DNA from: Nostoc sp. FACHB-152
GTDB taxonomy: Bacteria > Cyanobacteriota > Cyanobacteriia > Cyanobacteriales > Nostocaceae
DNA: 53,730 nt
Assembly (NCBI RefSeq): GCF_014697475.1
Contig: NZ_JACJRV010000049.1
Coordinates: 1 to 53,730, forward strand
Direction of reading: 5' to 3'
How positions within the stretch are numbered: the first letter of the stretch is position 1; every line of letters begins with the position of its first letter. The translations under genes and the position numbers were made by a program. Below are positions 13,063 to 23,600 of the stretch, in pieces. The notes beneath the pieces were generated by a model that ran no database searches, was not told the DNA's origin, and saw nothing but the letters and a program-made list of their open reading frames with translations.

Positions 13063-14451
13063 CCCTCTTGTGTCACTATCGCGGTAGCATAATAATGTAC
13101 AAAACCTAGAACGAAGACACAGAGCATGGTAGAGCCTCGTTCACCCATTAAAACCGTCAAGTTTGTGGATGAATATTGCTTGTGGTATAAAAACCTGTTT
13201 TCAGATGTTAGGAATTTTGAAGCTTTCAAATATCTACATATAGGATGTATTTCTGATTTAAAACGAAAAAGTCTACCAGAAATAGCGAAAATTGTCGGGC
13301 TAGATAATTATCAAGGACTACATCATTTCTTAACTACATCATCTTGGGAAGTAGAACAGTTAAGAGCTTTGCGATTTAAACTAATCTTAGAGGTACTAAA
13401 AGGAAGACCAATCATTTTAATTATTGATGAAACAGGAGATAAGAAGAAAGGAAATACAACAGATTATGTGAAACGGCAGTACATCGGAAATTTGGGAAAG
13501 ATTGAGAATGGAGTTGTAGCAGTCACCGCGTATGGTGTATTCTGCGGGATGACTTTTCCCCTACTATTTGAAGTATATAAGCCACGGGAAAAATTAAAGC
13601 CAGGAGATAAATATCTTACCAAGCCTCAAATCGGGGCAATGCTAATCAAAAAACTACAGTTAATGGGTTTCAAATTCAACTTGGTGCTGGCAGATAGTTT
13701 ATATGGAGAGAGTGGAACGAATTTCATATCAGTGCTAGATGAACTTGATTTAAATTATTTAATGGCAATTCGCTCAAACCATTCTGTAGACTTACTTAAA
13801 GGGCAGTACACTCAATACTTAAAGTGGCAAAGGTTTAAAAGAGTGTTCTCTAACTTAAGCAGTGAGAATCGGTTTATTCGAGAAATAATTCACGGAAAAC
13901 GTGGAGAACATAGGTATTGGCAAATTACTACAGACACTAAAACCTTACCTGGAAACTCTACCTGGTATGTCATGAGCAAATATCCCGACATTACACCTAG
14001 AGAGGTTGGTAATTTTTATGGGTTAAGAACTTGGGTTGAATATGGCTTAAAACAAAGTAAAAATGAATTAGGTTGGGCAGATTATCGTTTTACTCGCTAT
14101 GAAGATATCGAGCGGTGGTGGGAGATTATTTGTAGTGCCTACTTGATGGTTAGCCTTCATTCAGAATCTCTACATCTTTCTCCCCCAGATCCTCAATCAA
14201 CATTTGCTTCTCACCCCTGGTGGGATAATGGTAAAGGTTGGAAGAATATTCTCAACAATCTGCGTTTAGTTATTCAACCTTTTGTCCTATTTAACCTCAT
14301 ATATTCCTGGTTGACAGTTTTTCCTATTCCTCAACTGTCTTTGGGTTTTTCTACGCTTCAAGCCATCGTTTATAGGCTCACTTCCCCAATTTTTTTCTTC
14401 CTGGCTCATCCTGAATTCTATTTTTCTTCTGCCTAAAGTGACACAAGAGGG
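13063..14451 (+). mobile_element. Intact IS701-family insertion sequence (1389 bp)
   Basis: Terminal inverted repeats CCCTCTTGTGTCACT (13063-13077) and AGTGACACAAGAGGG (14437-14451) are perfect. The element is flanked by the 4-bp direct repeat TTAA (13059-13062 and 14452-14455), which fits the YTNR-type target reported for this family. It encodes one full-length transposase. A related solo end lies at 360-385. Confidence 0.92.
13126..14436 (+). CDS. IS701-family transposase
   Basis: A 436-residue DDE transposase. The first catalytic region LIIDETGDKKKGNTTDYV is the family hallmark. A second aspartate lies in NLVLADSLYGESG, and a glutamate region follows in WVEYGLKQSKNELGWADYRF. It cuts and pastes its own element between the inverted repeats at 13063 and 14451. 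The ORF runs almost end to end with no frameshift, so the copy may be active. It shows no sign of truncation. Confidence 0.93.
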   Translation: MVEPRSPIKTVKFVDEYCLWYKNLFSDVRNFEAFKYLHIGCISDLKRKSLPEIAKIVGLDNYQGLHHFLTTSSWEVEQLRALRFKLILEVLKGRPIILIIDETGDKKKGNTTDYVKRQYIGNLGKIENGVVAVTAYGVFCGMTFPLLFEVYKPREKLKPGDKYLTKPQIGAMLIKKLQLMGFKFNLVLADSLYGESGTNFISVLDELDLNYLMAIRSNHSVDLLKGQYTQYLKWQRFKRVFSNLSSENRFIREIIHGKRGEHRYWQITTDTKTLPGNSTWYVMSKYPDITPREVGNFYGLRTWVEYGLKQSKNELGWADYRFTRYEDIERWWEIICSAYLMVSLHSESLHLSPPDPQSTFASHPWWDNGKGWKNILNNLRLVIQPFVLFNLIYSWLTVFPIPQLSLGFSTLQAIVYRLTSPIFFFLAHPEFYFSSA

Positions 14452-14622: not shown

Positions 14623-15582
14623 ATGAACCTTTTGCAGTCACTCCGTCACTCTGGACAATCCATTTGGCTTGATGGGTTTGAGCGAAGCTGGGTGAGCAGT
14701 GGTCAGTTGCAACAAGCCATTGAAGAGGATGGGTTAAGGGGCGCACGATCAAACTTTAACGCGTTGAACCTTGCCATCCAGGGACATGCTTATGATCGCG
14801 ACTTCACTACGCTGGCACAGCAAGGGATGAGCCGGAGCGCTCAAGCAGATTATGAATATTTGCTTGTGCGAGATCTGCAATTAGCAGCTGATCGGTTGAA
14901 ACAAGTTCATGCTCATACACAAGGACGAGATGGTTATGTTCAAGTCGATCTGCCACCTGATACGCTATTTGAACCTGAAACTGCGATCGCTGCCGCTCAA
15001 AAAATCTGGCGGGCTGTAGGGTGGAGTAATTTATTGCTGAGAATCCCAGCGACTCGATTAATGCTGCCAGTGATTGAACAACTGCTTCGCCAAGGCATGA
15101 ACGTGAATGCTACGTTAGTGTTTTCTCTAAACGTATACAACCAGGTTTTTGACTGTTATCTCAGAGGATTAGAGAAGCAGATTCAGCTAGGAAAGTCCGT
15201 GAGTAACGGTATTTGCTTTGTCAGTTTTGCCATTGATCGGTTGGATGCGGCGATTAATCCACTCATGGCTCACTCAGAGATATCTTTTGGCATGATCCAA
15301 TCTAGGCTGCTCTATGAACATTATCAAATGCTCTGTCAAAGTGAAAGCTGGAGATCGCTTCCTAAAGGGGCAAAGCCACTGCGATTGGTGTGGGATTGCA
15401 CAGATATTCCACCTAAATTCGCATGGCATTATATTCAGGCTCTAAGGGTTCCTGAAACAGTGATGTTGCCGCCATCGCTTTTAGAGATGTATCGTAAGGT
15501 TTCTCTGCTGCCTCTAAAGCTGATTGACGATGAAAGCGATGAACAGATGATAACAAGCGCAACAGAAATTCTTATGGTTTTA
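14623..15582 (+). pseudogene. Transaldolase-like gene, 5' part, split by a Tn7-like element
   Basis: Residues 1-320 of a transaldolase-fold protein, in frame to GTT TTA at 15577-15582. The translated frame then runs ten codons into the inserted element and stops at 15612. Family signatures are present: NVNATLVFSLNVYNQV, the FVSFAIDRLDAAIN segment and an LRIPAT strand. In active transaldolases that strand holds the Schiff-base lysine (IKIPAT type); here it is Arg140 (AGA at 15040-15042), so normal transaldolase chemistry is doubtful even before the disruption. The missing C-terminus is found at 20457-20582. Joined, the gene would encode 359 residues. Confidence 0.85.
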
Positions 15583-15600
15583 CCCAAAAAATGGCCAAAT

Positions 15601-15821
15601 TATGAACCATAACTTGACCAAAAGTTAACGAAATTACAGAGCTTACAGGCAACAGGCAAATAAAATTTTGTATCAATTCATGGCCGCGTGTTGAAAAAAT
15701 GAATCATAATAAAGCCAGAAGTTTTTTAGCCGGAAAACTTTAAAATTCCACAAAACAATTAGCTCTTTCATCAACTTTCCGACCAAAAAGTGGTTCAAAA
15801 TGACTAAAATATGGTTCAAAA
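15601..15821. repeat. Left-end candidate TnsB-binding sites
   Basis: One site in + orientation, TATGAACCATAACTTGACCA (15601-15620), and two in the opposite orientation at 15781-15800 and 15802-15821. The pair share TGGTTCAAAA and lie 21 bases apart. The first matches the right-end repeat at about 16 of 20 positions. Binding by TnsB is inferred from position and repetition only. Confidence 0.5.
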
Positions 15822-15899
15822 AAGCTTTGATGAGTAGTGTTTGTGGATTGCTGTCAGGCTGAAAACTCTGATTATTGGCACTCTCAATGGTGCAAGTCA

Positions 15900-18617
15900 A
15901 TGAACTCACAAGAGTTTGAGTATTGGTGTAGACGGCAACAACTAAAGGCACAAACTATTGATTTGATTGCCAGTATTCGCGCTGCCCCACCCTCACGTCG
16001 TGTACAAGGACGTGCCAAGAATGTCAGTGGAGTTTACCCTAGCCGCAAAATGGGTCAAACCATCCAATTTGAGAGCCACACAGTAGAACTATGGGCAATT
16101 TACCAAATGGAACACGACCCAGACGTTTTAGAGTTCTACGACCAACCCCCACCCTTCAAAATCCAGTACAAAAATGCAGCCGGACGGAACATAGGTCACT
16201 ATCATACCCCTGACTTTTTCGTGTTGCGCTCCACAGGAGCAATGTGGGAAGAATGGAAAACAGTTCATGAATTAGAGCGACTAGCCCAAAAATACCCAGG
16301 ACGCTACCAAAAAACCGAAACAGGTGATTGGTATTGCCCACCAGGAGAGGCAGTAGCCGCTTCATGGGGACTAAAATATAGTGTCCGCACAGATGCTCAA
16401 TTGCATCCAGTCTTCACTCAAAACTTGATGTTTTTGGAAGATTACTTCGGATTTAACGCCAATATCCCCGCCATCGTTACCGAAAAAATACAGCAATGGG
16501 TAAAAACTAACCCAGGAACAACCATTGCAGCAATGCTGGCATCAGTGAGCGGAGTCAGAGCCAACGATGTATACACTATGATTGCTACCCAACAAGTTTA
16601 CGTGGACTTGTATGCGGTTGGTTTAGTGGAACATTGGCGGGTAAAATTGTGGCCAGACCAACAAACTGCTGATGCACATGGACTAATAGCAGTAGAACAG
16701 TCCTTACCCAAAAAGGAGTTCATCTCAAAAGCGTTGCTCTTACCTAACACAACATTCTTGTGGGACTCAAGACTGTGGACTTTAGTCAACTTGGGTGAAA
16801 CTACAACCACGCTATTACCATGTGCAGGGCAACCAATACAGTTGCCAACAGCATTTTTTTTCCAATTACTAGAAAGTGGTAGTATTAGCATCCAGTCACA
16901 AGAGAAACTCGATAGCACCAACGAAACTGTACGCTTATTGATGGATGCCGCTTCTTCTGCTGACTTACAACAAGCAAACTACAGATTCCATCTAGTACAA
17001 GCATATTTTCAGGGTCAGACAGATATCTACAAAAACATCAAACCGCGCACCCTGCGACGTTGGGTACAACAGTTCCGTGAAGCCGAAGCCAGTTTTGGTT
17101 GCGGTTATGTTGGGTTGCTGCCGCGTACCGCTAGTAGAGGAAATCGCCAACCCAAAGCACCAACGGATGCAAGCAAATTATTAGATCAATTTATTACCGA
17201 ACACTTCGAGACACCAAGACAAGCTCCCGCCGCTTCCGTTTATCGCGCCTATACAAGAGCCTGCTGTGCTGCCAACGTTACCCCACTGAGTCAACGCACA
17301 TTTTATACTCGTCTAAAAAAGCGTCCCATCCATGAGCAGACTTTAAAACGTCAGGGAGCAAAAGCCGCATACGCAACCGAACCGATTGTTTTAGAACTAG
17401 CTAAAACAACACCCAGGCATGGAGACAGACCCTTTGCTATCTGCCATCTTGACCACACCCAACTCGACATTGAATTACGCTCTCAAGTTTCTGGTCGTAA
17501 TTTAGGACGACCTTGGCTAACATTACTGATTGATGCCTACTCCCGACGAATCTTAGCAGTTTATCTCACCTTTGACCCACCTTCTTACAGGTCTTGCATG
17601 ATGGCACTACGGTTGTGTGTTCAGCGTGAGGGTCGTTTTCCTCAATCTGTAGTTGTAGATGGTGGTAAGGAATTTCATAGCGTTTACTTTGATACCTTAT
17701 TAGCACGTTACCACTGCATTAAAAAGACTCGTCCTGGTGCTAAACCCCGTTTTGGCTCAGTAGTTGAGCGATTATTCGGCACAACCAATACAGAATTTAT
17801 CTTTAACTTACTGGGCAACACCCAAGCCAGTAAACAACCGCGTCAATTGACCAAAGTTGTTGACCCCAAACAACTTGCCGTTTGGACATTGGCAGATTTA
17901 TATACCTACCTGTGTGAGTGGGCATATAACATTTATGACACGAGCGTACATGATTCCTTGGGTGAGACACCATTACAAGTTTATACCGACGCTATCGCTG
18001 CCACAGGGGAAAGGGAACACCGCCGCATTGCATACAACGAAGACTTCCTCATGGCAACACGCCCTAGTACACCCAAAGGCAACGCTAAAGTCCAGCCGGG
18101 ACAGGGAATAAAAGTCAATTATCTTTATTACTGGAACGATGCTTTCCGCAATCCGGTTGTCGAAAAAACCAAAGTCAGTGTGCGCTATGACCCTTTTGAT
18201 ATGGGTGTAGCTTATGCGTACTTAGAGGGAAGATGGGTCAAATGTATCTCCCAGTATTACAGCACCTTTGCCGGACGCACGGAGAAAGAAGTGCTATTAG
18301 CTGCCCAAGAAATTAGGCAACAAGATAAGCGTAATGCTGTGAGTACAAATATCTCTGCTAAACGCCTTGCCGACTTCATCGCGGCGGTGCAAGAGCATGA
18401 AACCTTGCTCTTGCAACGGTTACGAGATTTGGAAGCGGTTGGAGTGCTAGAGAATGTCACACCCAATACCCAAGGTGTACCCCAGTTCCCAAGAGTCAGC
18501 ACTCTTGAGCCGGAGATAGAAGCACATAATCAAGATGACGAACCATTGCCACCACTGCAAAACAACGTTGAACTGTTGGATCTCACACGACTGCCGATAC
18601 TAGGGGAATACCGTTAA
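15900..18617 (+). CDS. TnsA-TnsB fusion transposase
   Basis: A 905-residue fusion. The N-terminal TnsA endonuclease (about 1-190) shows Glu58 in IQFESHTVEL, Asp105 in YHTPDFFVL and Lys120 in EEWKTVHEL, matching the E-D-K catalytic set of Tn7 TnsA. The remainder is TnsB, a DDE integrase with helix-turn-helix regions, Asp518 (CHLDHTQLD), Asp587 (VVVDGGKEF) and Glu623 (GSVVERLFG). TnsA cuts the 5' ends and TnsB joins the 3' ends, giving cut-and-paste movement. An in-frame GTG lies at 15837, but the start MNSQEFEYWCRR at 15900 matches the family. Its stop overlaps the tnsC start by one base (TAATG), so the two are translationally coupled. TnsAB fusions are known in type I-B CRISPR-associated transposons. 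Confidence 0.92.
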   Translation: MNSQEFEYWCRRQQLKAQTIDLIASIRAAPPSRRVQGRAKNVSGVYPSRKMGQTIQFESHTVELWAIYQMEHDPDVLEFYDQPPPFKIQYKNAAGRNIGHYHTPDFFVLRSTGAMWEEWKTVHELERLAQKYPGRYQKTETGDWYCPPGEAVAASWGLKYSVRTDAQLHPVFTQNLMFLEDYFGFNANIPAIVTEKIQQWVKTNPGTTIAAMLASVSGVRANDVYTMIATQQVYVDLYAVGLVEHWRVKLWPDQQTADAHGLIAVEQSLPKKEFISKALLLPNTTFLWDSRLWTLVNLGETTTTLLPCAGQPIQLPTAFFFQLLESGSISIQSQEKLDSTNETVRLLMDAASSADLQQANYRFHLVQAYFQGQTDIYKNIKPRTLRRWVQQFREAEASFGCGYVGLLPRTASRGNRQPKAPTDASKLLDQFITEHFETPRQAPAASVYRAYTRACCAANVTPLSQRTFYTRLKKRPIHEQTLKRQGAKAAYATEPIVLELAKTTPRHGDRPFAICHLDHTQLDIELRSQVSGRNLGRPWLTLLIDAYSRRILAVYLTFDPPSYRSCMMALRLCVQREGRFPQSVVVDGGKEFHSVYFDTLLARYHCIKKTRPGAKPRFGSVVERLFGTTNTEFIFNLLGNTQASKQPRQLTKVVDPKQLAVWTLADLYTYLCEWAYNIYDTSVHDSLGETPLQVYTDAIAATGEREHRRIAYNEDFLMATRPSTPKGNAKVQPGQGIKVNYLYYWNDAFRNPVVEKTKVSVRYDPFDMGVAYAYLEGRWVKCISQYYSTFAGRTEKEVLLAAQEIRQQDKRNAVSTNISAKRLADFIAAVQEHETLLLQRLRDLEAVGVLENVTPNTQGVPQFPRVSTLEPEIEAHNQDDEPLPPLQNNVELLDLTRLPILGEYR

Positions 18618-20083
18618 TGGACAACTTTTTAACCGGCAATCAAAACGGCGAAATACAGTCTAGACTTACCCAGTTTAAGGAGTATGCAGTTTTACATCCC
18701 CAGTTAGCACGGGTAGATATGTTGTTAATGCGTGCGATTCGAGAACCTGCCGGATTTGCTCATGTGTTAGTGTATGGGCCAAGCGGTGTGGGCAAGACAA
18801 CGATGATACGGCAGATTGCTAAAAGGTTAAATGAAAATGTAGCCGAACAGTTACCGGGTGTATCTAATTCCTTAAGCTATCGTAACGGCTCTGGGCCCCC
18901 AATGCCGTTATTGCTCTTAGAAACACGACCACCGGATGGTGGGGTGTTTAATCGAGCAGATTATTACCGCACTGCACTGAAACTTTTGGGAGAACCATTC
19001 TATGAGCGGCGGATGCTGATAGATATTGACGCTGAACAAACTTGGGAGAAGAAAGGGCGTGGGCGGACTAAAACAGCCCAGTTTAATGATTCGCCTGAAC
19101 TGCGTCACGCATTAGAAGAAGCGATGACCAAACGTGGTGTACGGGCGGTGATTTTGGATGAAGCACAGCACTTAATGAAGATTGGGACTGGCGCAAGTGC
19201 TGGTAAGCTTTTAGACCAGTTGGACTGGATTAAGTCCATGACTAATGTTACGGGAGTGCTACACATTCTGATTGGGACTTATGAACTGCTCAATTTCCGC
19301 AATTTAAGTGGTCAAGCATCTCGGCGGGGACTGGATATTCATTTTCCGCGTTATTTATATCAAAATGAACTTGACCGCCAGGATTTTCAAGCCGCATTAC
19401 TGGCACTGTTGATGCAAGTACCTATGAATGTGGATGTAAAAGAGCTAATGCAGCATTGGCTTTATTTTTATGAACGTTCCATTGGTTGTGTTGGGGTACT
19501 CAAAGACTGGCTCATCCGGGCTGTGGCGGCGGCATTGCATGATGGTCACGATACCCTGAGTTTAGAACGACTGCATGAACATACCCTCACACTAGCCCAA
19601 TGTGAACGCATGGCTTTGGATACGACTGAGGGAGAACAAAAACTCTCGTACATGGAAAGTCGCCGTGAACATTTGTGGCATTTGCTACAGATGGGTATGG
19701 GTTCGACCTCTGTACCAAAAGCGGCGGTGGATTTATCCAAGGGCGCGGCGACTGCAACTGCATCGCCCTCTAAATCTGACAAACCAACGTCAAAAGCAAA
19801 ACGGACTCGTAAAAAGTCTGCACCCCAGAGCAATGATGAAACGGCTTCTACGACACCAAGCGAAACTTCTATAGAACCAGCACCTAAGAAAAAACAAACT
19901 CGTAAGAAGACAAAACCAGGTGATTCTGACCTTAGTGAGACACCACTGGAAACAAATATTACCCCATCTCCCACGGATGCACAGAAGACAGATGAAACAC
20001 CGGAGCAACCGCAAACGCCTAAAAAGTCTTCGGGGCGTGTTGGTCAACGCAAACCTAAACGTGATGCTGTAGGACAACAGTAG
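18617..20083 (+). CDS. TnsC/TniB-type AAA+ transposition regulator with basic tail
   Basis: A 488-residue AAA+ ATPase. Walker A is YGPSGVGKTTMIRQIAKRL (about 54-70), Walker B RAVILDEAQHLMKIG, and sensor/arginine-finger region GQASRRGLDIHFPRY. It would form filaments on target DNA and activate TnsAB. The AAA+ core and helical domain end near residue 370. The last 115 or so residues are low-complexity, rich in Ser/Thr/Pro/Glu, with basic clusters KAKRTRKKS, KKKQTRKKTK and GRVGQRKPKR. Such a tail could bind DNA non-specifically. It is the second gene of the element and overlaps tnsAB by one base. Confidence 0.9.
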   Translation: MDNFLTGNQNGEIQSRLTQFKEYAVLHPQLARVDMLLMRAIREPAGFAHVLVYGPSGVGKTTMIRQIAKRLNENVAEQLPGVSNSLSYRNGSGPPMPLLLLETRPPDGGVFNRADYYRTALKLLGEPFYERRMLIDIDAEQTWEKKGRGRTKTAQFNDSPELRHALEEAMTKRGVRAVILDEAQHLMKIGTGASAGKLLDQLDWIKSMTNVTGVLHILIGTYELLNFRNLSGQASRRGLDIHFPRYLYQNELDRQDFQAALLALLMQVPMNVDVKELMQHWLYFYERSIGCVGVLKDWLIRAVAAALHDGHDTLSLERLHEHTLTLAQCERMALDTTEGEQKLSYMESRREHLWHLLQMGMGSTSVPKAAVDLSKGAATATASPSKSDKPTSKAKRTRKKSAPQSNDETASTTPSETSIEPAPKKKQTRKKTKPGDSDLSETPLETNITPSPTDAQKTDETPEQPQTPKKSSGRVGQRKPKRDAVGQQ

Positions 20084-20130
20084 AACATCAAAAAACTAAG
20101 TATTAAACAGAGCTATACAATCCTCTTCTA

Positions 20131-20188
20131 CCGTGTAATACATGGAGTTTCTGTCTCTTTTTCACTACATCACCCGTGTAATACTTGG
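20131..20188. repeat. Pair of CCGTGTAATAC(A/T)TGG direct repeats
   Basis: Two 15-base units, 20131-20145 and 20174-20188, differ at one base and start 43 bases apart. Each is nearly palindromic (CCGTGTA-A-TACATGG). They lie between tnsC and the right end of the Tn7-like element. A protein-binding site pair is possible; two units are too few to call a CRISPR. Confidence 0.4.
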
Positions 20189-20399
20189 TAAAAGGTGATT
20201 CTTTATTACTTCAGTTAGAGATTTGGTGTTCAAGCGATCGCTTGAAGGTGGGGCGGAGCATCGCCGTACTCATGCAGATATGTTTTGCTGTTAGCAACTG
20301 CAATGGCAACGCTACCCAAAAACGGGGCAGGCGTTAAAATTTTTGAGCTAAATTACCTGCTGTAGCTAAGTTTTAGGTTTTTTAAACTCGAATTATAGG

Positions 20400-20445
20400 T
20401 TTGAACTATATCTTGTCCACTTGGGTTGTGAACTATATCATGTCC
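20400..20445. repeat. Right-end candidate TnsB-binding sites
   Basis: TTTGAACTATATCTTGTCC (20400-20418) and TGTGAACTATATCATGTCC (20427-20445), starting 27 bases apart and ending 12 bases before the right GTTTTA. The tandem arrangement just inside the junction is as expected for TnsB sites. The rest of 20189-20399 shows no gene. Confidence 0.6.
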
Positions 20446-20456
20446 TCTTTGTCCAA

Positions 20457-20582
20457 GTTTTAGGTAAAAGCACAATTCTCTCGGATGAGCAGATTGACCA
20501 ACTCGTGAACGAGGAAATGGCGCGATCGCTCAACGCCTATCAACAGTTGCTAGACACCATTGAACACAAGCGAAGACGCTGA
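20457..20582 (+). pseudogene. Transaldolase-like gene, 3' part
   Basis: GTT TTA at 20457 continues the frame interrupted at 15582. It encodes 41 residues beginning VLGKSTILSDEQIDQLVNEE and ending YQQLLDTIEHKRRR. This C-terminus has the typical transaldolase ending (LL.TIE.KR), which supports the reconstruction of a 359-residue protein. The fragment has no start codon of its own. It ends 18 bases before the convergent WD40 gene. Confidence 0.85.
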
Positions 20583-20600
20583 ATCTGGCTGCCTATCGCC

Positions 20601-23600
20601 TCAATGGTCAATTGCTCCTAACGCTTTAAGAGTCGTTCTTTGAGCTACTGTCAACCCAGTTGCTCCTTGAATATTCATGCCTTCATACAGACGATCAACC
20701 GTCAACGTTTCGATACAACGTCCTGTCTGCACATCCCAGAGCTTGATTGTGCGATCGTCACTCCCACTGAATAGGATTTGACCGTTAGAGCTAAAGACAA
20801 CTGACCGAACCCAACCGCTATGTTCATCCAAAATGTGAAGGCAATGCCCTGTTTGCAAATCCCACACTCGAATCGTTTGGTCATCACCGCCACTTGCCAA
20901 GAATCGACTGTCGGGACTGTTGGCGGAGCCTGCGCTTGGTGCATAGGCAACTGTCCAGACAGTTCCTGTATGCCCCTGCAAAACTTTCAGACAGGCTCCA
21001 GTTTCTACATCCCACAATCGAACGGTTTGGTCAAGACTGCCACTTGCCAGTCGGCGACCACTGGCATCAAATGCCAGTGCGAAAACTGCGTCTGTGTGTC
21101 CCTGTAAAACCTTCAAACATACTCCAGTTTGCACATCCCAGAACCGGATGGTGTGATCGAAACTGCCACTTACCAACGATTGACCACTCTTGTCAAACGT
21201 AATCGCGGGAACACCGCCCTCATGTCCGCGCAACACGTGCAAACAGTGATGCGTTTGCACATCCCACAGTCGCACGGTGCAATCATAACTACTGCTTGCC
21301 AGAATTTGTCCCCCTGGACTAAACAGAACTGTCCACACGGCTGCGTTGTGTGCTGACCAGCGATCAAGGTGTCCGGTTTGGATATTCCATAAAGCGATCG
21401 ACTCATCGTGTCGATTGATCGCGAGAGTTTGATTATCGGGACTGAAGCTGACGTTGCTTAATGATGAAATCTGACGCAACCGACTGGGAAAAGCTTTGTA
21501 GGGCTGAAACGATGACAGATCGCCACCTGGTTGTAAACGCCACAGCTGAATCATTTCATTCTGACCACTACTAGCGAGTATCTGGTCATCCGAACTGAGG
21601 CTCAGGGAATGAATCCCGCCAGTATATCCACGCAACGTTTTCAGGTTTCGTCCGCTCTGTAAATGCCACAGCCGCACCGTATGGTCTTTTCCAGCACTGA
21701 CCAACAGTTGACTGTCGGCACTGATGGCAAGTCCATAAACATCGTGGGTATGACCCTCAAGTACACAGATGAGTTGCCCGTCTTCAACACTCCAAAGGCG
21801 CAGCGTACTATCGAGACTGGCGCTAACCAGCCAACGACCGTCCGGACTAAACACAACTTTCCAGACCCAACCAGTATGTCCTTGCAGCAATGTGAAAGTA
21901 AGTTTTGATGAGCGATCGCCAGGGTGATGACCGCGCCACAGTCGAATTGATCCATCACGACAACCGCTAGCAAGCAGTTGTCCATCCGGGCTGTAGCGTA
22001 CACACTGAACTCCGGTGGTATGTCCCTCCAGAACACGCAAGCAGTTGCCATCGCGTACATCCCAGATCCGAATGGTTGCATCATTGCTGCTACTGACCAG
22101 GGTTTGCTGATCGGTCGCAAAGTGGACGGAATAAACACTCCGGGTATGTCCTGTCAAGACACGGAGACACTGCCCTTGCAAATTCCATAAACGCACCGTT
22201 GTGTCATCGCTGCAACTTGCTAATTGCTGGCTATCGGCACTAAAACTCACTGACCAAACACAACCTTCATGGTCTGTAAGCACCTGCAAGCATCGTCCAC
22301 TCTCGATATCCCACAAGCGCACGGAACTATCACTACTGCCACTGGCTAACGTTTTGCCATCGGAACTAAAGGCAACCGACCAAACCCAGCCTTTGTGTCC
22401 TGAAAAGGTGTCCAGAAGTTGGGCTGTGCTAATGTTCCAGAGATAGATGTTGCCATTAGAATCGCCAACGGCAATGGTCTGTCCATCTGGACTCAAATCG
22501 ATCGACCTCCCAAGATTGTGGGTTTCTGAAAAGATTGATTTCGCTAAGTCAGCATTCTGAAAATTGACTCCTGCTAAATCGACCTGTCGCAGGTCGGCTT
22601 GCTGTACTACTAAGCCAGAAAAATCCCAGCCGCGTAAGTCCACTTGAAGCTGCACCAGCAGGTTAATTAGGTTGCCTGCGGTGTATCCTGGTTTCTTTCC
22701 CTGTTGCCTTAATAGGTGTCTTGCTTGCGCCTCGATCGCTGCCACACTGCCAAAGCAAGACAGCAACTGTTCCATCACAGGTTGCACAATCAAGCGCGTC
22801 TGAATCTCTCGAATGTAATCTTTTGCTTGTACTCGCAGTAAGGAGTGCGTTTGCCAAACGTTAAGTTGCTGCGTCTCAAATTCGATACAGACCTGCTGTA
22901 CAAAGCGTTCTGTAACATATTCCATCACCACGGGTTGCAAGAGGAATAACCCATCGTTTTTTTCAATGAGCGTAGGCTTTGCCTTCTCGATGAGCGATCG
23001 CCTCAGTAGTGAGTTGATTAAATTAGGTACACTTTGTTGAGCCGCAGGATCAACCACATTCTCTCGAATATCTGAGATTGAGACTGGCTCCCGATGAATT
23101 GCAAACCAGAACAGTGTTTTCTGTTCGGCTTCGGATAGGCGAGCGAACTGACGGTCTAGCAAATCGCGGATGTCTTCAAAAACTGCCAATCCTTGACTCA
23201 GATAGGGCAACACCTCAGTAATGCTGCCGTTAAATAAATCCCCAATTGCGGCTGCCAACAGTTTCAATGCCAGAGGATTGCCGCCGTAGTGACGGATCAA
23301 AGTCTCCCATTCGGCTTCTGAACCTGTAAACGCTCCTTTTTGCCGAAAGATGGCGCGTCCGTCATCAGGGGTTAGTCCACTCAAGACCAGCGATCGCACT
23401 AGCGCCTGTGCGCCTTCCATCAGTACCATTTCCCGTGGCTTTTCTCGACTAGTGAGCAACAAACAACTTTGGTGGGAAGCTTCGCCAATGGCTCTGAGCA
23501 ATTGTCCGTAACCTTCGTAGCCTGATATCCATTGTCCCACAGGCTCACGCTGCAAAATGGTTTCAGTATTATCCAAAATTAATAAACACCGACGCGATCG

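What the first reader, a model, noticed from the sequence alone, without database searches (positions are those of the whole stretch)
15583..20456. Compact Tn7-like element with only TnsAB and TnsC, inserted in a coding gene
Seen: fused TnsA-TnsB with E-D-K and D-D-E residues, an overlapping TnsC, repeated end sites, flanking GTTTTA, and no TniQ/TnsD, Cas or cargo gene. Known: Tn7-like and CRISPR-associated elements normally need a TniQ-family target selector, and Tn7 itself needs TnsD or TnsE unless TnsC is mutated. Inference: this element may move by a selector-free route, or borrow a TniQ from elsewhere in the genome.
Basis: partly seen in the sequence, partly recalled or inferred. Interest (0 to 1): 0.78.

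Follow-up and report, generated by a model that had tools for sequence, protein, structure and literature searches.

The report
Tn7-like transposon family without TniQ
A small two-gene jumping element in cyanobacteria, built from the cutting-and-pasting core of Tn7 but without the gene that normally chooses the landing site, recurs in many species at unrelated places and appears to land with little or no site choice.

Summary
It is 15573-20474 (4902 bp), flanked by an exact 5-bp target duplication, ATTCT, inside a transaldolase gene whose frame is restored when the flanks are joined. GTTTTA is not the duplication. It encodes only a TnsA-TnsB fusion (905 aa) and an overlapping TnsC (488 aa).

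It is not a deletion derivative. Its TnsAB falls in a clade with 100/100 support (23 rows) in which I found no TniQ, spread over cyanobacteria plus one Ktedonobacteria genome. Nearest relatives (PmcCAST core, Tn5469-like, 40-48% identical) usually carry TniQ. Of 30 copies with both ends mapped, 17 have exact 5-bp duplications, all different; 13 do not, and for 2 of those recombination between inverted copies is shown. At least five genomes with open copies have no TniQ match anywhere. Clade TnsCs lack an N-terminal FPxELL-like motif seen in 10 of 11 TnsCs of the TniQ-bearing group, and full-length cyanobacterial ones carry a long K/R-rich linker.

Best reading: an autonomous, selector-free Tn7-like transposon whose TnsC itself chooses the target, as MuB and IstB do. 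Activity is inferred, not assayed. New variant of a known kind.

The parts
15568..15572 (.). [quoted passage not shown]
   Evidence: exact match to 20475-20479; joining the flanks restores the transaldolase frame
15573..15594 (.). left terminal inverted repeat, TATGGTTTTACC...
   Evidence: aligned with left ends of relatives, TGTGCTTTTACC
15573..15820 (.). left end with repeated sites like TTTGAACCATAA, presumed TnsB-binding sites
   Evidence: 5 sites; binding is inferred
15900..18617 (+). tnsAB: fused TnsA endonuclease and TnsB DDE transposase, 905 aa (the mechanical ORF starts at 15837)
   Evidence: Pfam matches, invariant positions, 9bw1 chain M E=4.5e-262
18617..20083 (+). tnsC: AAA+ target-DNA ATPase, 488 aa, overlapping tnsAB by one base
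   Evidence: Pfam AAA_22 and TniB, 8fcu chain Q E=8.6e-73
19691..20026 (+). codons for the K/R-rich linker of TnsC (about residues 359-470), long in full-length cyanobacterial members of the TniQ-less clade
   Evidence: alignment with TnsCs of the TniQ-bearing group
20027..20080 (+). conserved TnsC C-terminal tail with VGQRKPKRDAVG, shared with the TniQ-bearing group
20131..20190 (.). two palindrome-like sites CCGTGTAATACATGG and CCGTGTAATACTTGG; in relatives they lie beside a small antisense ORF that is missing here
20400..20441 (.). right end repeated sites, presumed TnsB-binding sites
   Evidence: 2 sites
20453..20474 (.). right terminal inverted repeat (reverse complement TGTGCTTTTACC...)
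20475..20479 (.). [quoted passage not shown]
14623..15572 (+). interrupted transaldolase gene, 5' part
   Evidence: Pfam TAL_FSA; junction continuous in genome G028
20480..20582 (+). interrupted transaldolase gene, 3' part up to its stop codon
   Evidence: joined frame; uninterrupted 75% identical match in G028

Best explanation
This is one copy of an autonomous Tn7-like cut-and-paste transposon family that has dispensed with TniQ/TnsD. Inferred steps: TnsAB binds the repeated end sites; the TnsA part cuts the 5' strands and the TnsB part cuts and joins the 3' strands; TnsC, loaded on DNA without a TniQ docking partner, marks the target and recruits TnsAB through the TnsB C-terminal hook and the retained TnsC tail; gap repair leaves the 5-bp duplication. 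Target choice then rests on TnsC's own binding to DNA, possibly helped by its basic linker, so insertions are close to random and may disrupt genes. Shown from sequence: gene content, ends, duplications, diverse sites, one clade, purifying selection. Not shown: activity, DNA binding, independence from host factors.
For: No TniQ match in 49 sources with 16 TniQ seeds including short V-K-like ones. One clade against the TniQ-bearing group, 100/100. In 5 of the 12 elements examined (window, L096, L125, L131, L158) no ORF of 60 aa or more lies between TnsC and the right end. 17 insertions with exact 5-bp duplications, all different. Identical copies at separate sites in Nostoc sp. ATCC 53789, in Trichormus, and across the closely related Tolypothrix/Fremyella strains. 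Five joined sites read through in one long frame, four of them in different kinds of gene and one in a DDE transposase. Genomes with both frames open and no TniQ match: G432, G440, G441, G347 (3 contigs) and G242. Loose FPxELL pattern in 10 of 11 TnsCs of the TniQ-bearing group (variant in the 11th) and 0 of 29 clade TnsCs. dN/dS where dS was finite: 0.13-0.20 for TnsAB and 0.05-0.21 for TnsC. In solved complexes TnsC meets TniQ through its N-terminal face and TnsB through its C-terminal face and tail (PMC13345079, passages).
Against: No transposition assay of the clade was found or made. 21 of 29 and 15 of 20 tested genomes, and 6 of 6 tested earlier, do hold some TniQ match, so help in trans cannot be excluded where present. 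13 of 30 copies with both ends mapped have no 5-bp duplication of their own; recombination between inverted copies is shown for two of these, the other 11 are unexplained. The duplications carry slightly more base information than random flanks (p about 0.009), so a weak preference may exist. The Ktedonobacteria copy lacks the K/R-rich linker and has a different extension. The structure model of TnsC is poor (mean pLDDT 49.6) and adds nothing firm.
Confidence: 0.72

Rival explanations
1. The element uses a TniQ supplied in trans by other Tn7-like elements in the same cell.
For: The window's genome has 7 TniQ matches and two other TnsAB loci with TniQ next door; most genomes tested with the clade element hold some TniQ match (21 of 29; 15 of 20; 6 of 6).
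Against: 8 of 29 and 5 of 20 genomes, overlapping sets, have none, including five with both reading frames open (G432, G440, G441, G347, G242). Clade TnsCs lack the N-terminal motif of the TniQ-bearing group. Insertion sites are not the tRNA-type sites listed for type I-B2 and I-D elements: ARAGORN found one tRNA in 16 loci, about 2 kb from its element, and none in the window.
Confidence: 0.13
2. This copy is a deletion derivative of a TniQ-bearing transposon, immobile or on its way out.
For: The left terminus reads TATG rather than TGTG, and the small ORF usually beside the palindromes is gone. Many clade copies elsewhere are broken.
Against: The same two-gene content recurs in one clade with selected frames and multiple identical copies. 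L049 also begins TATG and has an exact duplication, though its own TnsC is frameshifted.
Confidence: 0.05
3. A host protein or DNA state (replication fork, plasmid DNA, a chromatin protein) acts as the target selector in place of TniQ.
For: 9 of the 17 duplicated-site copies come from plasmid records; a weak excess of base information in the duplications.
Against: Those nine come from a search of a plasmid collection, so the share is biased. The window copy lies in a transaldolase gene, and no column of the sites stands out (p 0.31).
Confidence: 0.1

Closest known systems
PmcCAST / Tn7744 transposition core (type I-B2)
   Same: Best solved relatives of both proteins: TnsC 8fcu (same sequence as 8ff4, which PMC13345079 names PmcCAST) and TnsAB 9bw1; fused TnsAB; same conserved TnsC tail.
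   Different: PmcCAST uses TniQ with a tRNA att site and a type I-B CRISPR effector (PMC11406308 table passage; PMC12585508 text). The window element has none of these and inserts at unrelated sites.
Tn5469 (Fremyella diplosiphon)
   Same: Compact, no cargo, described as appearing to have only untargeted transposition (PMC11406308 passages).
   Different: The review says Tn5469 has one TniQ. An element in Tolypothrix PCC 7712 with TnsAB of 909 aa, TnsC and TniQ, 4904 bp by my reading of its ends, fits the length and protein size that I recall for Tn5469 (paper not readable). Its TnsAB is 72% identical to L064, which lies on the TniQ side of the tree, outside the window's clade.
Type I-D CAST, and CASTs without TniQ on other transposons
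   Same: CyCAST (I-D) shows RNA-guided transposition without TniQ, apparently by direct contact with TnsC (PMC11656645 passage; PMC10293859 passages). CASTs on Mu-like transposons (I-A) and on telomeric transposons (I-E5) are reported without TniQ-TnsD (PMC12669027 passage).
   Different: Those use a CRISPR effector to aim, and I-A and I-E5 sit on other transposon kinds. The window element has no effector.
IS21 (IstA-IstB) and phage Mu (MuA-MuB)
   Same: Transposase plus AAA+ partner; PMC10293859 (passage) states that IS21 has not been reported with a target selector.
   Different: No TnsA cutting domain (recalled). The window proteins are Tn7-type by sequence.
Tn7 with gain-of-activity TnsC (TnsABC without TnsD or TnsE)
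   Different: Laboratory mutants, whereas here the selector-free state is natural and conserved over a clade.

Membership tests
Tn7-like transposons | TnsB-type DDE transposase with a TnsC-type AAA+ partner | tested here: met
Tn7-like transposons | TnsA-type endonuclease (cut-and-paste) | tested here: met
   PF08722 above cut-off and invariant E, D, K positions; cutting not assayed
Tn7-like transposons | 5-bp target-site duplication and terminal TGT...ACA | tested here: met
   ATTCT in the window; 17 of 30 mapped copies have an exact duplication. The window's own left terminus is TATG.
Tn7-like transposons | TniQ/TnsD present (called ubiquitous in the Tn7 branch, PMC10293859 section 8, read) | tested here: not met
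   0 of 49 sources
CRISPR-associated transposons | Cas effector or guide RNA inside the element | tested here: not met
   no ORF of 60 aa or more between TnsC and the right end; no Rfam match in 15400-20700 at E up to 1; CRISPR arrays were not searched for separately
Tn5469 group | one TniQ; TnsAB close to L064/L156 | tested here: not met
   identity of L156 with Tn5469 rests on recalled size
IS21 / Mu type | transposase plus ATPase without selector, works at many sites | tested here: inconclusive
   gene content and sites fit; mechanism not assayed, and the proteins are closest to Tn7-type ones

The most novel reading that the evidence does not exclude
A natural branch of Tn7-like transposons gave up target selectors altogether: its TnsC lost the TniQ docking motif at the N terminus, in most members gained a basic linker, and now chooses targets itself, turning a tightly aimed transposon into an insertion-sequence-like one that spread through cyanobacteria and reached Chloroflexota.
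Probability: 0.55. Interest if true: 0.75.

Novelty: new variant of a known kind. Interest (0 to 1): 0.62.

Why it matters
A broad survey of TnsC loci calls tniQ/tnsD ubiquitous in the Tn7 branch (PMC10293859). A conserved clade without it suggests that the Tn7 core can persist without a selector, and gives a natural comparison, related to the structurally solved PmcCAST proteins, for asking which parts of TnsC impose dependence on TniQ. If active, it would be a two-protein, low-bias Tn7-type insertion system.

Tried and rejected
Rejected: GTTTTA as target duplication (inside both ends); deletion derivative; equating the element with Tn5469, first suspected from the review passage and the similar length, dropped when a TniQ-bearing element of about that length turned up in Tolypothrix; a known RNA family in the element (no Rfam match); the palindromes CCRTGTAWTACAYGG as a signal special to this clade: they occur in 10 of 60 genomes, also in ones where one search found no TnsAB match such as G020, and lie beside a small antisense ORF.

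On the 4904 bp of L156: one search gave 4892 bp with an apparent repeat GTCAC; I moved each end out by 6 bases by eye because GTCAC reads as part of the terminal repeat, which gives 4904 bp with no flanking duplication. I knew the recalled length when I did so.

Led nowhere: the AlphaFold model of TnsC was poor (mean pLDDT 49.6) and I did not search with it. A search of the own genome with the right end found one other match, 61 bp at C40, not pursued. The TniQ screen used too few seeds (five, one of them a fragment) and was redone with 16. AT-rich duplications were considered: 52 of 85 bases are A or T, as in the flanks. The right end of L159 was not found.

Prior mention: the 2023 survey of cyanobacterial Tn7-like elements (PMC9881144) and the 1995 Tn5469 paper (PMC177578) are not held and may mention this clade. 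Searches of the held library. Phrase searches for TniQ-less wording gave 3 papers and 0; I read passages of those 3, none on this clade.
Full report
Observation. Translation and Pfam confirm a TnsA-TnsB fusion and a TnsC overlapping by one base. The element runs from 15573 to 20474 (4902 bp) with ATTCT on both sides. The flanks are the two parts of a transaldolase gene; joined, they give one open frame. Of 60 genomes searched with the joined site, the own genome matches in two pieces, G028 matches across the junction (75% identity, positions 2-253 of 253), G052 has a 28-base match, and the rest none. End repeats are above chance.

Is it alone? In the own genome TnsAB has 7 further matches; those on C112, C170 and C169 are 42-49% identical, the rest 28-33%. 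C112 and C169 have TniQ next door; the contig of C170 ends just after TnsAB. PF06527 has 7 matches in the genome. Among stretches fetched from relatives, the close group (L049-L055 and the decayed L067, 62-85% identical) shows no TniQ beside it. Of those near 40-48%, all have TniQ or a piece of it except L017 and L065, which are cut by a contig end. A scan of genome contigs with the TnsC alignment returned 36 loci, in cyanobacteria apart from one Ktedonobacteria bacterium, brp13. In the family, 45 of 217 genomes had a DNA match to a Tolypothrix copy, many of them partial. In an even sample of 386 genomes of the phylum, 6, the own one included, had a TnsC match at E up to 1e-90.

TniQ in cis. 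With 16 TniQ seeds, including the short V-K-like kind, no frame of 70 aa or more in 49 sources (window 7001-29000, L049, L050, L083-L118, ten plasmid loci) matched at E up to 0.01. Several of these loci are cut by contig ends. In 5 of the 12 elements examined there is no ORF of 60 aa or more between TnsC and the right end; others carry small accessory ORFs, and the ten I scanned have no TniQ match in Pfam. The Trichormus elements are 6495 bp with three hypothetical genes after TnsC.

TniQ in trans. Of 29 genomes reached through the loci, 8 have no PF06527 match at E up to 0.001. Of 20 genomes chosen partly for few contigs, 5 have none. Of 6 tested earlier, all 6 have at least a weak match. Both frames are open in G432, G440 and G441 (loci L092, L100, L101), and in G347, a 3-contig assembly, and G242. 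G440 and G441 are metagenome assemblies. The other TniQ-free genomes hold copies that are broken, partial or cut by contig ends.

Phylogeny. In a tree of 34 TnsABs the 23 rows without TniQ are one side of a branch with support 100/100, and none of 500 label shuffles needed as few changes. The row labelled TniQ for L065 is cut by a contig end and no TniQ was seen there; the one for L059 has a fragment. The root is by midpoint, so the direction (loss of TniQ) is inferred from the general presence of TniQ in Tn7-like elements.

Sites. Both ends could be mapped in 30 copies at different places. 17 have an exact 5-bp duplication: window, L049, L086, L087, L088, L096, L108, L090, L125, L127, L158, L161, L129, L130, L131, L132, L133; in L049 the chosen pair ranked second and was taken for its likeness to other ends. 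L128 repeats the site of L125 in a related strain and is not counted. 13 have none: L083, L084, L092, L094, L100, L101, L103, L105, L114, L115, L116 (L105 with weak end scores), L160 (same as L157) and L162. Eight of the 17 were used to build the end profile applied. For L160 and L162, two inverted copies on one plasmid (L162 was taken from genome G462), the loss is explained: one reads GTGTT...CTTAT, the other CTTAT...GTGTT, and in the related strain NIES-3275 the first site reads GTGTT...GTGTT, with 200 of 200 bases identical on each flank compared. So recombination between inverted copies swapped the flanks. I did not test this for the other 11. The 17 duplications all differ. Their summed information is above random flanks (p 0.0085) while no single column of the 45-base site stands out (p 0.31). 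Five of the eight sites outside the plasmid collection lie in one frame of more than 270 codons once joined: transaldolase, a NucS-domain protein, an OLD-like protein, one with no Pfam match, and a DDE transposase (junction only 22 codons into that last frame); three do not. Of nine plasmid-collection sites, three have joined frames over 200 codons, not identified, and six do not.

TnsC. The AAA+ part aligns with PmcTnsC (8fcu, E 8.6e-73) and TnsAB with 9bw1 (E 4.5e-262). TnsCs of the TniQ-bearing group share an N-terminal FPxELL-like motif: 10 of 11 match the loose pattern I used, the eleventh (L057) reads FPLKLL; 0 of 29 clade TnsCs match, though three begin MENFPES. The pattern was chosen after seeing the alignment. 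The region from about residue 340 is 133-226 aa in full-length cyanobacterial clade rows against 50-74 aa in the other group, rich in K and R, and ends in the shared VGQRKPKRD-like tail; the Ktedonobacteria row differs and L117 is truncated. In three comparisons the region after residue 358 evolves faster (dN/dS 0.32-0.42) than the core (0.04-0.11). The TnsB C terminus differs between the groups, mostly LPxxxEYR in the clade; L103 lacks it. In solved complexes TnsC meets TniQ through its N-terminal face and finger loop, and its C-terminal tail contacts TnsB, with an analogous contact in PmcCAST (PMC13345079, passages). That the FPxELL motif is the docking site is my inference.

Known work. PMC10293859 (section 8 read, other passages) calls tniQ/tnsD ubiquitous in the Tn7 branch. 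PMC8649781 (passages) finds tnsD/tniQ in 73-97% of transposons per clade, so cases without it are implied, but not described as a lineage in the passages I saw. The review PMC11406308 (passages) describes Tn5469 as having one TniQ and apparently only untargeted transposition. TniQ-independent RNA-guided transposition of CAST I-D, and CASTs without TniQ on other transposon kinds, are in print (passages). An element with TniQ in Tolypothrix PCC 7712 fits what I recall of Tn5469, so the window clade looks like a separate, TniQ-free group. Two likely sources of prior mention could not be read.

Verdict. A real, conserved, TniQ-free Tn7-like transposon clade, most likely autonomous with little target choice. 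The anatomy is well supported; activity and the target mechanism are inferred.

Noticed in passing
window 20131-20190; L084, L085, L092, L093, L099, L108, L112, L114, L117: Palindrome-like sites CCRTGTAWTACAYGG lie after TnsC. A small antisense ORF (143 aa in L108, no Pfam match, looks to me like a small DNA-binding regulator) lies beside them in L108 and 9 other loci, in some of them shortened; in L083 it lies outside the mapped element. The window keeps two sites but not the ORF.
   Followed up: partly
L160, L162 (Tolypothrix plasmid): Two inverted identical copies recombined and inverted the plasmid segment between them, swapping the target duplications.
   Followed up: yes
L114 5586-9050: A 1154-aa frame joins TnsAB to the C-terminal part of TnsC in a second copy on a Nostoc carneum plasmid, probably an internal deletion.
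   Followed up: no
L113 (AP024096.1, Ktedonobacteria bacterium brp13): A clade copy with both frames open in Chloroflexota; its TnsC has a different C-terminal extension with a CPTC motif instead of the K/R-rich linker.
   Followed up: partly
window 13126-14436: A DDE_5-type transposase gene lies just upstream of the interrupted transaldolase.
   Followed up: no
L060, L061, L062 (G019): Three elements with identical match scores, each TnsAB, TnsC and one TniQ, at separate places in one genome, resembling Tn5469 in layout.
   Followed up: no
L129, L130, L159: Trichormus and Nostoc NIES-3756 plasmid copies each have three hypothetical genes in the same arrangement downstream of TnsC; in the two Trichormus copies these lie inside the mapped element.
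   Followed up: no
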